Notes under the pieces: model-generated
Told to the model about the DNA's origin: nothing
The model's database searches: none
What the model saw: the letters and a program-made list of their open reading frames with translations, nothing else
NCBI GenBank assembly: GCA_028691535.1
Contig: JAQUZB010000007.1
Location: forward strand, 1-64,000
Length of the DNA: 64,000 bases
Direction of reading: 5' to 3'
Origin: Candidatus Altimarinota bacterium
Lineage (GTDB): Bacteria > Patescibacteriota > Gracilibacteria > BD1-5 > UBA6164
Shown: in pieces, positions 35,843 to 58,951 of the stretch
Layout: every line of letters starts with the position of its first letter
How positions within the stretch are numbered: position 1 is the stretch's first letter
Program-made: the position numbers and the translations under genes

Positions 35843-38722
35843 ATGTACCATTTAAAAATTAAAGTTAAAGCTTTTACATTAGTAGAATTAATAGTTGTAA
35901 TCACAATATTGGCAATATTATGAACAATAGCATTTATAAATTTGCAATGATATAGTACTGGTGCAAGAGATAGTAAAAGAATAAGTGATATAAATAATAT
36001 ACAAAAAAAGATAACAATAGAATTATCAAAATGAACATTATTGTCAAGTTTGATAAATACAGTAAAAACAAATACATGATTAACAATAGATGGTAATCCA
36101 GCAATATCAATCCAATGAACAGCAAATTTTCTTACACTAAAAGAGAATTGAGATAAGTTCAAAGATCCAGTAACAAAAGGAGATTATTTATTATCATATT
36201 CTATATGATGAACATGAACATGAGCATATAAATTCACACAAATATGAACAGTAAATGAAGAAAATAATCAAGCAGTAATAAAGTGAAATTACTATCAAAT
36301 GCAAGTATGAGATAGTCCAAGTATAACAGTAAACAATGAAGATTACTATGTAGTAGATGCATGAGTAGATTTACCATATATTGTTGATAATTCTTGAGAT
36401 TCAAGTAGTAATTCATCTAGTTGATGACCTGTTGTAACTTATGAATGTAATTGACTAATATGAAGCGCGAATCCAGATCAACGGTGAGATAATTATTGAT
36501 ACCAAGATTTTGATTTATGTACTAATACAATAATATTAAGTTCATTGATTAATATACCACTTTCAAGTAATCTAACAAATAATCCATGAGCTCGTGAAGT
36601 TTATGCATTTGTACTTGAACAATGAAAAACATATACATTAGAATCATTATGAAATGATACTGATAGTGATACTGCATTTTTTTTATATGATAATTTATGA
36701 AATAAATTAGCAATTAATGATGATTTAAGCAATGATATTTATAGATCTAGTATTACATATGTAGCACCTTATACATGATATTATTATTTATGAGTAATGT
36801 GATATGATGATTGATGAACTTATGCTGATTATACATTAAGTATAGATGATTGAAATAGTACTAATCCAGTTAATTGAATGTGTTGAAGTGATAATTGAAA
36901 ATTATTATTAGTTACACCAACAAACCTATGTAGTAAATGAACTTCATCAATAGTTACTGATCAGTGAGAATGATTAAATTATACATGGACTTGTGATTGA
37001 ATAAACTGAGGTGGGAATACTTCATGCAGTGCAATACATAAAGTAGCTATTGCATGTAATTATCAACAAGCTGATATTGATGCGTTAAATATTTCATGAT
37101 GATATGAAAATTTTAGTGTAACTGATGAAAATTATAATACTCTTACAACATTTCCACTTACAAAGGATCAATGGTGTAGTGTTACTAATTTGACTTGGAT
37201 TTGATGAGCAAATGTTACTCCAGAAATATTTACTTTAAATTTATTAACATATCTAAATTTATATAATAATTGAATTACAACTCTACCACCTGAAGTATGA
37301 AATCTAACTAGTTTAACTAATTTAGATTTATCTACTAATTCACTTACAAGTTTACCAGATGAAATAGGTAATTTGGCATATTTAGATTTTTTATGAATAT
37401 GATCAAATCAACTTACAAGTTTTCCAACAATAATATGAAATTTAAGTAATTTAACTAGTTTACAATTGTATAATAATAAAATTTCAAGTGTTACTCATGA
37501 AATATGAAATTTAACTAATCTAGTTAGCTTAGGTTTGGGTACAAATTTACTTAATGATTTACCATCAGAATTATGGAATTTAAATAAGTTAACTTATTTA
37601 TCTCTAAGTTCAAATCAGATTTCAAGTATACCGTCACAAATATGAAATTTAACTAATTTAACTAATTTAGATTTATCAACAAATCAAATTACTACTTTAC
37701 CTTCAGAATTTTCTAATTTGGTAAATTTGAAAACTTTATATTATGATAATAATCAAGTTGTAACGATACCACAAAGTATATTTAGTTTATCAAGTTTAGA
37801 AACTTTATATATGAGAAGTAATTTAATTACAACTCTACCACCGGATATATGAAATTTAACTGGTTTAACTACTCTTGATTTTGAAGCCAATAAAATAACA
37901 GGTATACCAGCAGAATTTTGAAATTTAATTAATCTATCATATCTACGTATTAGAAATAATAAAATTACAAGTATAGCACCAGAATTTTCTAATTTATCTA
38001 GTTTAACATCATTGTATATAGAGAGTAATCTTCTTACAACATTACCAGTAGAGTTTTGAAATTTAACTAGTTTAATTAGTTTATTTTTAGATTCTAATCC
38101 TTTAACAAGTATTCCATCTCAATTTTGAAATCTATCTAGTTTAAGAACTTTATATCTACGGAATAATCAATTAACAGATTTACCACTAGAGTTTTGAAAT
38201 TTAACTAGTTTAACTACACTTCATTTTTGAGCTAATCCAGCCACTAGTGTTCCAGATGCTATATTTAATCTTCCGAATTTAAAATATTTATGACTTTTAG
38301 ATATTCATAATATTGCAAGTATACAACCATCAATTTCAAATTTGACTAATTTAATTAGTTTAGATTTCCGGCGGGCAAGTAGTTTAACTACTGTTCCTCC
38401 TGAAATATGAAATTTACCAAATTTAGAATATTTATATTTTGGTAATAGTGCTTTAACAGTTTTACCATCAGAGGTGTGAAATTTATCTAAATTAAAAACA
38501 TTGAGAGCTTATAATACTCATTTAACAACTCTACCTTGAGAGTTAACTAATTTAACTAGTTTAACTAATTTTAGTTTAAGTGGTAATTCATGATTATGAC
38601 AACTTAATAAAGATTTTTGAATTAGCTCACCAAATAGTTCACAAGTTAATATTCCGACTACATGACAAACAATGACAGTTTGATGAAATTGAACTAACGT
38701 AGTTGTTACTGTAACCCCATAA
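35843..38722 (+). CDS. Giant pilin-like surface protein: type IV prepilin N-terminus, PPC domain and about 20 leucine-rich repeats
   Basis: 959 residues.
Residues 1-35: prepilin leader and transmembrane helix with cleavage site KA/FTLVELIVVITILAIL (Glu at +5), the substrate of the PilD encoded at 8.3 kb.
Residues 35-190: pilin-like head.
Residues ~210-335: a bacterial pre-peptidase C-terminal (PPC)-like beta domain, from LINIPLSSNLTNNPGAREVY to YADYTLSIDDG.
Residues ~340-400: a disulfide module with CSKGTSSIVT and WTCDGINGGGNTSCSA.
Residues ~455-945: about twenty 23-residue LRRs with consensus NLTSLTxLxLxxNxLTxLPxEI and GN encoded TGA AAT.
The LRRs are of the bacterial/SHOC2-like type used for protein binding. 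Four CGG codons are present. A pilus or pseudopilus adhesin for host contact is inference. Confidence 0.92.
37200..38660 (+). repeat. Leucine-rich repeat array (about 20 x 69 bases)
   Basis: Coding repeats with recurring AATTTAACTAGTTTAAC and ATATGAAATTTAAC blocks. Repeats are diverged at codon level, so they are not a recent expansion, except that repeats 5-7 and 12-15 are closest. Confidence 0.9.
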
Positions 38723-38723
38723 T

Positions 38724-38762
38724 TAAAAAAGAATATAAACTAAAGTTTATATTCTTTTTTCT
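38724..38762. terminator. Bidirectional terminator
   Basis: Seventeen-base stem AAAAAAGAATATAAACT with AA loop. It contains the last codons and stop of the convergent MFS gene. Confidence 0.92.
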
Positions 38763-54036: not shown

Positions 54037-54067
54037 AAAAAAGCTTAGATTTATCTAAGCTTTTTAT
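54037..54067. terminator. Bidirectional terminator trxA / pilC
   Basis: Stem AAAAAGCTTAGAT/ATCTAAGCTTTTT with TT loop, between convergent genes. Confidence 0.93.
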
Positions 54068-55194
54068 ATTACATTTACCATATTGAAAAATGGTAACATT
54101 ATAGCCATAATCAGTGTTCAAATTATTCATCAAACTATAACTATTACTAGTGGTTCAATCGCGGTTTGAATATTTTTTACTATTGAATCTATTTCTTTAT
54201 TCATTTTTAAACTTATCTTTATAAGTAAGTTTGCCATATTTCAAGTTTCTTCTCATATCTTTATTACACTTGCTAATTCAATTGGAAATAAGAAGTTTTC
54301 TTTTCAACTTTGGATTTCATTTATTCACATAAGTGTGCTTAATTCTATTCATTTACTTACTCTAGAACTTATTTCTTTCAAGTCTCTTTCATAATAATCA
54401 TTATCTAATGCTCTAGAACTTATTTCTAAAGAGTTATTTATTATTACTCAATTTTTAAGTAAAATTCAAAGGCTTGAAGTAAAAAGTGCTAATATTTTTT
54501 TCTTAATTAATGGTCAAAAAATAGGAACTCTAATAATCATATAATCCCAATATATCTTTGTTTTTTTATGACTTTTAAATATTGATATTCAAATAATAAA
54601 TAAGATTATAAAAAATATAATATATATAATATTTTCTTGAATAAATTTAGAAGTCTTTATTACATTTTGTGTTAAACTAGGTAAATTTACCTTTGAATCA
54701 GAGTACATTTTTTCAATCTTTGGAATTACAAAAATCATAAATACTCATATCATAACAATTGATAGAGAAACTATTACCATAGGATAAATAAGTGCTCATA
54801 TTATCTTACTTTTTAATTCTCTTGTTTTTTCTTCTTTAATTTTTATTGTTTCGATAGAATCTCAAAGTTTTCAAGTAACTTCTCACATTTCTATTATTGA
54901 TAGATCAAATATATTAAATATATGTGGAAATTTTTCAAAAGCATTTTTTAGATTATTTCATGTATTTAAACTTTCTATAATTGAGTTTAATAATTTTTTC
55001 ATATTTTTATTTCTAGTTTGATACATAATTATTTTCAAACTATTTATAAGAGGAATTCATGATTGAAGTAGACTTGATAATTGCTCCAAAAGATTTATCT
55101 TATCTTTTGAGCTTATTTTTATTTTTGAACTTCTATTATTTAATATTTTTTCAAAAAATAGCTTAATATTTTCTAAATTTAAATTTTTAATCAT
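54064..55194 (-). CDS. pilC: Type II/IV secretion inner-membrane protein PilC/GspF
   Basis: 376 residues. Two GspF domains: the first with LEQLSSLLQSGIPLINSLKI, IEMGEVTGKLGDSIETIKI and KLKSKIIGALIYPMVI-like KSKIIGALIYPMVIV; the second with ALFTSSLGILLKNGVIINNS, LASVIKIGEETGNMANLLI and IEPLVIVIVGGIIGTLIMAI. Three hydrophobic hairpin regions. PilC is the platform protein of type IV pili, which works with PilD (8.3 kb) and pilins (35.8 kb). No PilB/PilT ATPase is adjacent. Confidence 0.94.
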
Positions 55195-58324: not shown

Positions 58325-58951
58325 TTAAAATTTACCAGTTACAGTAAATGTAATTGTATCTTCATAATCACCAGCTTGTGTTTGTGCATCTGATGTAGCA
58401 GCAACTTTAAAAGTTAAATCTTGAACTGTAGTATCAAGTTTTTCTGGTTTATTTGTAGTATATATAACATGTTCAGTTGAATTGTTATTTACCTCAGTAG
58501 CAGTTAAATTACCTGATGTATTTGTAAAACCAACAACTGTTGAATCAATTGCATTTGCAGTTGATGCAAATGTATATGATTCAGCAACACCATCAGTAGT
58601 TAATGTATTCATTTGAACAGCATTGTTAGAAGTATTTGTTAATCATCCACTTCCAGATCTAGCTGTAATATTTACACCATCTTTAGCGTTTGTACCAACT
58701 TCAATATCAATTGTACCACTTGCAGTAACACCTGCAGTTAATGTACCTAAATTAACTTCTGAAGCAGAAATTGTCATATTTAAACTAGGTAATACTTTTG
58801 CTTTAACTTTAATTCCAGAAACAGAACCAGTTGCAAAACCTGGGAATGCATCATCCCAAATAACAGAAGAATTAAATGCACCTGTACCAGCAACACTACC
58901 TGTACCAATATTAGTAGCGGCAAATGTTGTACCTAATGTAGTTGCAACCAT
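58325..58951 (-). CDS. WxL-like secreted surface protein (reading frame interrupted at its signal peptide)
   Basis: 208 residues from ATG58951. The sequence is all-beta, Thr/Ala/Gly rich and almost free of charge: SLNMTISASEVNLGTLTAGV, then TASGTIDIEVGTNAKDGVNI and a C-terminal QAGDYEDTITFTVTGKF, the repeat-ending pattern of WxL-domain and spore-coat-U-like proteins. In the frame upstream of ATG58951 the codons read KNIALVSIAG, clearly a signal-peptide core, but a TAA (58982-58984) cuts it off. The real start is probably ATG59000 in another frame (see next entry). G+C is markedly higher than in neighbours, and codon choice (GTA, ACA, GCA) suggests high expression. Pairs with the DUF916-like gene downstream. 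Confidence 0.8.

What the first reader, a model, noticed from the sequence alone, without database searches (positions are those of the whole stretch)
35843..38722. Type IV pilin N-terminus fused to a PPC domain, a disulfide module and about 20 leucine-rich repeats
A 959-residue protein starts with a perfect prepilin cleavage/membrane segment (KA/FTLVELIVV) and continues into a long LRR solenoid. Pilins are normally 120-200 residues; LRRs are typical protein-recognition modules. This would put a large binding solenoid on a pilus or pseudopilus tip or on the membrane. In an epibiotic lineage that depends on host contact this is a strong candidate adhesin, and the architecture is one I do not know from described pilus systems.
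Basis: partly seen in the sequence, partly recalled or inferred. Interest (0 to 1): 0.85.

Follow-up and report, generated by a model that had tools for sequence, protein, structure and literature searches.

The report
Pilus subunit with leucine-rich-repeat head
A tiny, probably host-dependent bacterium makes a pilus building block that carries a large protein-binding "head"; it is one of about a dozen such blocks in this genome that share nearly the same pilus part but carry quite different heads, which suggests an interchangeable set of grappling hooks for grabbing other cells.

Summary
Under genetic code 25 (TGA=Gly), 35843-38722 (+) is one 959-residue ORF: a leader ending in Ala10, a complete (not only N-terminal) type IV pilin domain (11-181), a Ser/Gly linker, a PPC-like module, a four-Cys module and 20 LRRs with caps. 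It is not a chimera. The same LRR head is fused to pilins in a sister species (three tandem genes) and, on a different pilin type, in other genera. The wider finding is a family. This genome holds 16 copies of the same pilin domain, 13 intact with heads: LRR, Reg_prop, RCC1, fn3, DUF285 and Fib_succ_major-like. A sister genome holds 28. DNA identity is high across the pilin and drops at the head. Heads pair across species while pilins cluster by genome (AU tests), so carrier and head have separate histories. The bare pilin in the pilB-pilC operon avoids TGA like EF-Tu and L7/L12, which marks it as the abundant major subunit; the window gene looks like a minor one. Best reading: a modular minor pilin presenting an LRR adhesin on a type IV pilus. 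Modular pilins are known (Raynaud 2021), and an RCC1-headed pilin aids host binding in Saccharibacteria. Filament incorporation and ligand are untested.

The parts
35843..35872 (+). Leader peptide (residues 1-10, MYHLKIKVKA), predicted to be cut after Ala10
   Evidence: N_methyl match 25.8 bits; same KA/F site in the putative major pilin and most paralogues
35873..36385 (+). Complete type IV pilin domain (residues 11-181), shared carrier of the family, Glu5 of the mature form conserved
   Evidence: Invariant FTLVELIVVITI..ILGTIAFI in 15 paralogues; 269 bits to the family model; AlphaFold2 pLDDT 87.9; best VIA-align rows are T4 pilins, Z 4.9-3.6
36386..36442 (+). Ser/Gly-rich linker (residues 182-200), where similarity to paralogues ends
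   Evidence: Translation; DNA identity to L016 falls from 88% to 45% at nt 540
36443..36862 (+). PPC-like module (residues 201-340, Cys202/Cys226)
   Evidence: Pfam PPC 252-318, 24.6 bits, just under cut-off; near-identical module before LRRs in L193
36875..37042 (+). Four-Cys module (residues 345-400)
   Evidence: Shared with L016 at 62.5% over 56 aa; similar sequences visible in L033 and L073; Cys 347/363/384/395
37052..37222 (+). LRR N-terminal cap (residues 404-460, Cys405/Cys445, CNYQQADID...QWC...WIGG)
   Evidence: Same motif in L073, L097, L187 and L188 LRR heads
37223..38617 (+). 20 leucine-rich repeats of 23 residues (461-925)
   Evidence: Pfam LRR_8 199.6 bits; regular helix/strand repeats, pLDDT mostly 80-97; Foldseek: SHOC2, Leptospira LRR proteins, InlA
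38618..38719 (+). C-terminal cap (926-959, GQTMTVGGNGTNVVVTVTP)
   Evidence: Conserved in L073, L187, L188; low pLDDT in the model
38727..38757 (+). Inverted repeat with flanking T run between the convergent genes, probable shared terminator
   Evidence: AAGAATATAAAC-TAAA-GTTTATATTCTTTTT read directly from sequence

Best explanation
A modular minor type IV pilin: a pilin 'carrier' with a grafted LRR adhesin head, one member of a set of exchangeable-head pilins. Inferred working: the prepilin is inserted by Sec, cut after Ala10 by the PilD homologue, and co-assembled in small numbers with the abundant bare pilin into the chromosomally encoded pilus, at its tip or along its length. The head hangs from a flexible linker and a PPC/disulfide stalk, and the 20-repeat LRR horseshoe binds a protein on another cell's surface. 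SHOWN by sequence: the intact fused ORF, the complete pilin domain, the LRR fold, the family of shared carrier with varied heads, the different histories of carrier and head, the presence of PilB/PilC/PilD/PilT-like genes. INFERRED: cleavage, incorporation, position in the filament, ligand, role in host attachment.
For: Pilin domain. Head. Family with varied heads. Machinery: T2SSE, T2SSF, Peptidase_A24 with D-x-KEKKIPN and GDAK; operon of T2SSE, SpoIIE-type phosphatase, T2SSF, bare pilin and a divergent T2SSE on C20. Abundance proxy: TGA fraction of Gly codons is 0.11 in the bare pilin (0.10 and 0.05 in its relatives), 0.23 in EF-Tu and 0.00 in L7/L12, but 0.85 in the window gene and 0.66-0.94 in all other family members. 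Same head on pilins elsewhere. Precedents: S. sanguinis PilB with a vWA head is an adhesin (PMC8179133); in Saccharibacteria TM7x the pilin PilX2 with an RCC1 propeller is needed for full host binding (PMC12206443), and this genome has an RCC1 head on the same carrier (L032).
Against: No expression, localisation or binding data. The organism is known only from a draft genome, with no experimental host. The pilin fold match to solved pilins is weak (Foldseek not significant; VIA-align Z below 5), although pilins top the list. The stalk (181-404) is modelled with low confidence. Thirteen different heads cannot all share one tip, so the position in the filament is unclear.
Confidence: 0.75

Rival explanations
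1. A membrane-anchored LRR surface receptor: the pilin N-terminus serves only as a signal anchor and the protein stays in the cytoplasmic membrane pool without entering filaments.
For: A 20-repeat solenoid is bulky; low predicted abundance; no direct evidence of assembly.
Against: Selection has kept the whole pilin domain, not just the anchor: 54 invariant columns over about 180 residues across 15 paralogues, homologous to the bare pilin of the pilus operon. A plain anchor would not need this.
Confidence: 0.15
2. A pseudopilus subunit used for secretion or DNA uptake (T2SS/Com-like) rather than adhesion; the heads bind cargo or DNA.
For: The genome has more than one T2SSF/T2SSE set, including a lone T2SSF in the window at 54064-55194. 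A related genome's large pilins were annotated as GspG (PMC6851277).
Against: Head diversity (LRR, propellers, fn3, DUF285) looks like surface recognition; GspG proteins are not known to carry such heads (own knowledge).
Confidence: 0.1
3. A dynamic repertoire in which recombination between the near-identical pilin segments swaps or silences heads (an antigenic-variation-like system built on modular pilins). This is an addition to, not a replacement of, the best explanation.
For: DNA identity plateaus over the pilin and drops at the head; L032 and L091 share a run of about 100% DNA identity under unrelated heads; head and pilin trees conflict; mosaic signal at silent sites; stop-interrupted copies with intact heads and one 5'-truncated pilin-LRR copy.
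Against: Could equally be slow concerted evolution or lineage-specific amplification of one carrier. No population data; the Sawyer-type test can be biased by uneven site constraint.
Confidence: 0.2

Closest known systems
Modular pilins (S. sanguinis PilB/PilC and InterPro survey; Raynaud et al. 2021, PMC8179133)
   Same: Short leader ending in Gly or Ala, pilin module, linker, C-terminal functional module not specific to pilus biology; heads of kinds listed there also occur in this family.
   Different: Here 20 LRRs plus PPC and Cys modules on one pilin, and 13 intact head variants on one closely similar carrier in a single genome, with separate histories of carrier and head.
Saccharibacteria TM7x PilX1/PilX2 minor pilins (PMC12206443)
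   Same: Patescibacterial minor pilins with large C-terminal domains; PilX2 has an RCC1 propeller and is needed for full host binding; an RCC1-headed member exists here.
   Different: TM7x has 12 putative pilins of which two carry extra domains; PilX1 and PilX2 lack a predicted PilD site, which the window protein has; no LRR head is described there.
Large multi-copy 'GspG' proteins of gracilibacterium 28_42_T64 (PMC6851277)
   Same: 15 large pilin-like proteins, mean 528 aa, in one Gracilibacteria genome.
   Different: Reported there as GspG without analysis of heads; their pilin type is a more distant carrier.
Bacterial LRR proteins: Leptospira LIC11098/LIC12759, internalin A
   Same: LRR solenoid with closely similar fold.
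   Different: Not fused to pilins (own knowledge); internalin A is wall-anchored through LPXTG (own knowledge).
Neisseria pilE/pilS antigenic variation
   Same: Homologous pilin copies, some 5'-truncated or interrupted, with signs of recombination.
   Different: There the pilin surface itself varies; here the pilin is kept alike and the attached head varies, and most copies are complete genes.

Membership tests
Modular type IV pilins | Class III signal peptide: hydrophilic leader ending Gly/Ala, hydrophobic stretch, Glu at +5 | tested here: met
   N_methyl 25.8 bits above cut-off; KA/FTLVE; leader rule from PMC10191384
Modular type IV pilins | Pilin module with lollipop fold (long helix plus antiparallel sheet) | tested here: met
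   AF2 model pLDDT 87.9 with two helices and five strands; top VIA-align rows are T4 pilins but Z below 5
Modular type IV pilins | Extra C-terminal domain not specific to pilus biology | tested here: met
   LRR and PPC-like modules
Modular type IV pilins | Subunit is assembled in a filament | not testable with these tools
   Only indirect: machinery genes present
Modular type IV pilins | Extra module acts in a pilus function such as adhesion | not testable with these tools
   No binding data
Type IV pilus system in this genome | Extension ATPase, platform protein, prepilin peptidase, major pilin | tested here: met
   bare pilin next to T2SSF with codon use like highly expressed genes
LRR superfamily | Tandem 20-30-residue LxxLxLxxN repeats forming a solenoid | tested here: met
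   20 repeats of 23 aa; Foldseek E 2.5e-24 to SHOC2
pilE/pilS-type antigenic variation | Gene conversion from silent, truncated copies into an expressed copy | tested here: inconclusive
   Mosaic signal, one 5'-truncated and two stop-interrupted copies; no population data

The most novel reading that the evidence does not exclude
A combinatorial adhesin system: the near-identical pilin segment works as a recombination handle and universal adaptor, so that heads (LRR, propeller, RCC1, DUF285, Fib_succ-like) are moved between carriers, switched on and off by stops, and homogenised to fit the lineage's own filament, letting an epibiont change which hosts it can grip.
Probability: 0.2. Interest if true: 0.85.

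Novelty: new variant of a known kind. Interest (0 to 1): 0.6.

Why it matters
How ultrasmall epibiotic bacteria recognise their hosts is largely open. If these pilins are filament subunits, the genome encodes a readable list of candidate recognition heads on one carrier, so host range could be tested head by head with purified domains. The shared carrier with swapped heads would also show how a reduced genome diversifies its surface cheaply.

Tried and rejected
Misassembly or chance fusion: rejected, since the same head is fused to pilins in other genomes. Foldseek of the pilin model gave no significant match, so the fold argument rests on VIA-align, family similarity and the N_methyl match. 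The XopAC/XopAE/SlrP NCBIfam matches are generic LRR similarity, far below their curated cut-offs, and were not taken as effector evidence. Synteny: the sister's LRR locus (L107) has different neighbours, so no conserved gene neighbourhood helps with function. A first family scan with a wrong range failed and was redone. Literature searches found no paper describing a pilin-LRR fusion as such, but only open-licence papers are held and the supplementary tables of PMC8179133 could not be read.

Full report
OBSERVATION. The window lies in contig C4 of a 1.26 Mb genome. With the standard bacterial code there is no long ORF at 35843-38722; with NCBI table 25 (TGA=Gly) there is one of 959 residues with 67 TGA codons. 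Its TGA share of Gly codons (0.85) matches the other ORFs in the window (median 0.80), so code 25 is right here. Pfam finds N_methyl, a borderline PPC (24.6 bits, cut-off 25.9) and many LRR models. I count 20 repeats of 23 residues from about 461 to 925.

ANATOMY. Leader 1-10, pilin 11-181, Ser/Gly linker 182-200, PPC-like module 201-340, four-Cys module 345-400, LRR N-cap 404-460, LRRs 461-925, C-cap 926-959. Cys residues fall in sets (202/226; 347/363/384/395; 405/445), as expected outside the cytoplasm. AlphaFold2 gives the pilin domain pLDDT 88 and the LRRs mostly 80-97, while the stalk region is poorly predicted. VIA-align ranks T4 pilins first for the pilin model (S. sanguinis PilA Z 4.9, then the S. 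sanguinis pilus, TcpA and PAK pilin), which is modest support; Foldseek alone was not significant. The full model matches SHOC2, Leptospira LRR proteins and internalin A.

A FAMILY, NOT A SINGLETON. The genome has 34 N_methyl matches. Sixteen proteins share the window's pilin domain at over 200 bits. Thirteen are intact with heads: LRR (window), Reg_prop propeller (L003, L091), RCC1 (L032), fn3 (L031), DUF285 (L098) and Fib_succ_major-like (L016, L021, L022, L090, L093, L094, L096; the Pfam matches I tested in this genome are below the curated cut-off). Two are bare pilins (L005, L090:5648-6187) and one is stop-interrupted (L009). A same-genus MAG, Candidatus Gracilibacteria STC_119, has 28 members, including three tandem pilin-LRR genes (L073), BspA-type LRR_5 heads (L072), DUF285 (L083) and a glycine-rich head with a weak match to phage tail-fibre adhesin Gp38 (L074). 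In a sweep of 60 genomes (this one and relatives) 59 have family matches, up to 58 per genome.

THE HEAD ALSO OCCURS ON OTHER CARRIERS. In 77 genomes of the order, LRR heads with the same N-cap and C-cap occur in other genera (G009, G066) on a clearly different pilin type, and related LRR heads in G021 and G033 too. In G066 one protein has the window's PPC module followed by two LRR blocks and a Fib_succ-like end (L193; its start lies outside the locus). So neither fusion nor domain order is an assembly accident.

CARRIER AND HEAD HAVE DIFFERENT HISTORIES. The window's pilin is 87.5% identical to that of L016 (Fib_succ-like head, same genome) but 64% to that of L073:217-2397, whose LRR head is its closest head relative (54%). 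DNA identity is high over the pilin (about 82-97% after the first 120 bases, against L016) and falls to background at base 540, where the head begins; L032 and L091 reach 100% inside the pilin under unrelated heads. For 12 Fib_succ-like members the head tree needs 5 genome-label changes, the pilin tree 2. AU tests reject the own-genome heads as one clade (p 0.002) and reject pilins following their heads (p 6e-5 and 0.001). On the 45-row pilin tree five of six head-defined pairs are rejected (p 0.023 for the window's pair, 0.0002-0.005 for four others); L090/L088 is not (p 0.24). The window's own test is the weakest, as L073:217 is a long branch. A Sawyer-type test on silent sites finds longer identical runs than permutation gives (none of 2,000 in this genome, p 0.0065 in the sister), which suggests mosaicism, but uneven constraint along the helix could contribute. 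These data show separate histories; whether by gene conversion, head transfer or repeated amplification is inferred.

MAJOR AND MINOR SUBUNITS. On C20 a cluster holds T2SSE, a SpoIIE-type phosphatase, T2SSF, the bare pilin L005 and a divergent T2SSE. L005 uses TGA for 11% of Gly codons, its relatives 10% and 5%, like EF-Tu (23%), L7/L12 (0%) and an S-layer-like protein (0%), while pilB and pilC of the C16 cluster use 79% and 88%. All other members, the window gene included, use 66-94%. I read this as one abundant major pilin and many scarce modular ones; it is an indirect proxy.

MACHINERY AND CLEAVAGE. A Peptidase_A24 gene carries both expected Asp motifs (D-x-KEKKIPN and GDAK) without a Pfam methylase domain. 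Ala at -1 is shared by 13 of 16 members and is an accepted leader end (PMC10191384).

MECHANISM. Most likely a modular minor pilin that presents an LRR adhesin on a type IV pilus. S. sanguinis PilB (vWA head) is an adhesin (PMC8179133). In Saccharibacteria TM7x, deletion of pilX2, a pilin with an RCC1 propeller, roughly halves host binding (PMC12206443), and this genome has an RCC1 head on the same carrier. Cleavage, assembly, position and ligand are inferred, not shown.

NOVELTY. Modular pilins are known, with Gracilibacteria among the examples (PMC8179133), and 15 large pilins were listed in another gracilibacterium (PMC6851277). I found no description of a pilin-LRR fusion or of a one-carrier, many-heads repertoire with separate histories, but the searchable library is incomplete. 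I therefore call it a new variant of a known kind.

Noticed in passing
window 58325-58951 (-): 208-aa Thr/Gly/Asn-rich ORF with only 1 TGA among 21 Gly codons (fraction 0.05) and no Pfam match; codon use suggests an abundant, perhaps surface, protein.
   Followed up: partly
window 54064-55194 (-): A T2SSF (PilC-like) platform gene away from the two clear pilus clusters (C16, C20), suggesting more than one filament system.
   Followed up: no
L038:7582-9500 (own genome C19) and L079:2000-5236 minus strand (sister genome): Family members with a single TAA or TAG inside the pilin domain but an intact head in frame behind it (propeller-like and RCC1): recent decay or a silent reserve.
   Followed up: partly
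L097:5452-6600 (own genome C20): A second pilin-LRR copy lacking its first 46 pilin residues and carrying a TAA, just behind the L021 pilin gene; looks like a truncated or silent copy.
   Followed up: partly
whole genome (L005, L070, L042, L198, L199, L197): In this code-25 lineage TGA for Gly is avoided in highly expressed genes (L7/L12 0.00, EF-Tu 0.23, major pilin 0.05-0.11) against about 0.8 elsewhere: a handy expression proxy.
   Followed up: yes
L036:9232-11133 (own genome C20): A SpoIIE-type phosphatase gene sits between the T2SSE and T2SSF genes of the pilus cluster, hinting at regulated assembly.
   Followed up: no
L117 and L174: Contigs labelled Betaproteobacteria MS502-56 and Magnetospirillum fulvum carry Gracilibacteria-type pilins (L117 holds a 903-aa ORF under code 25); probably mis-binned or contaminating contigs.
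   Followed up: partly
L034:2338-5271, L035:965-3745, L099:2965-4389: More distant pilin types in this genome also carry large heads: LRR plus MAM, repeated beta-sandwich-like blocks, and a fibrinogen-C-like domain.
   Followed up: no
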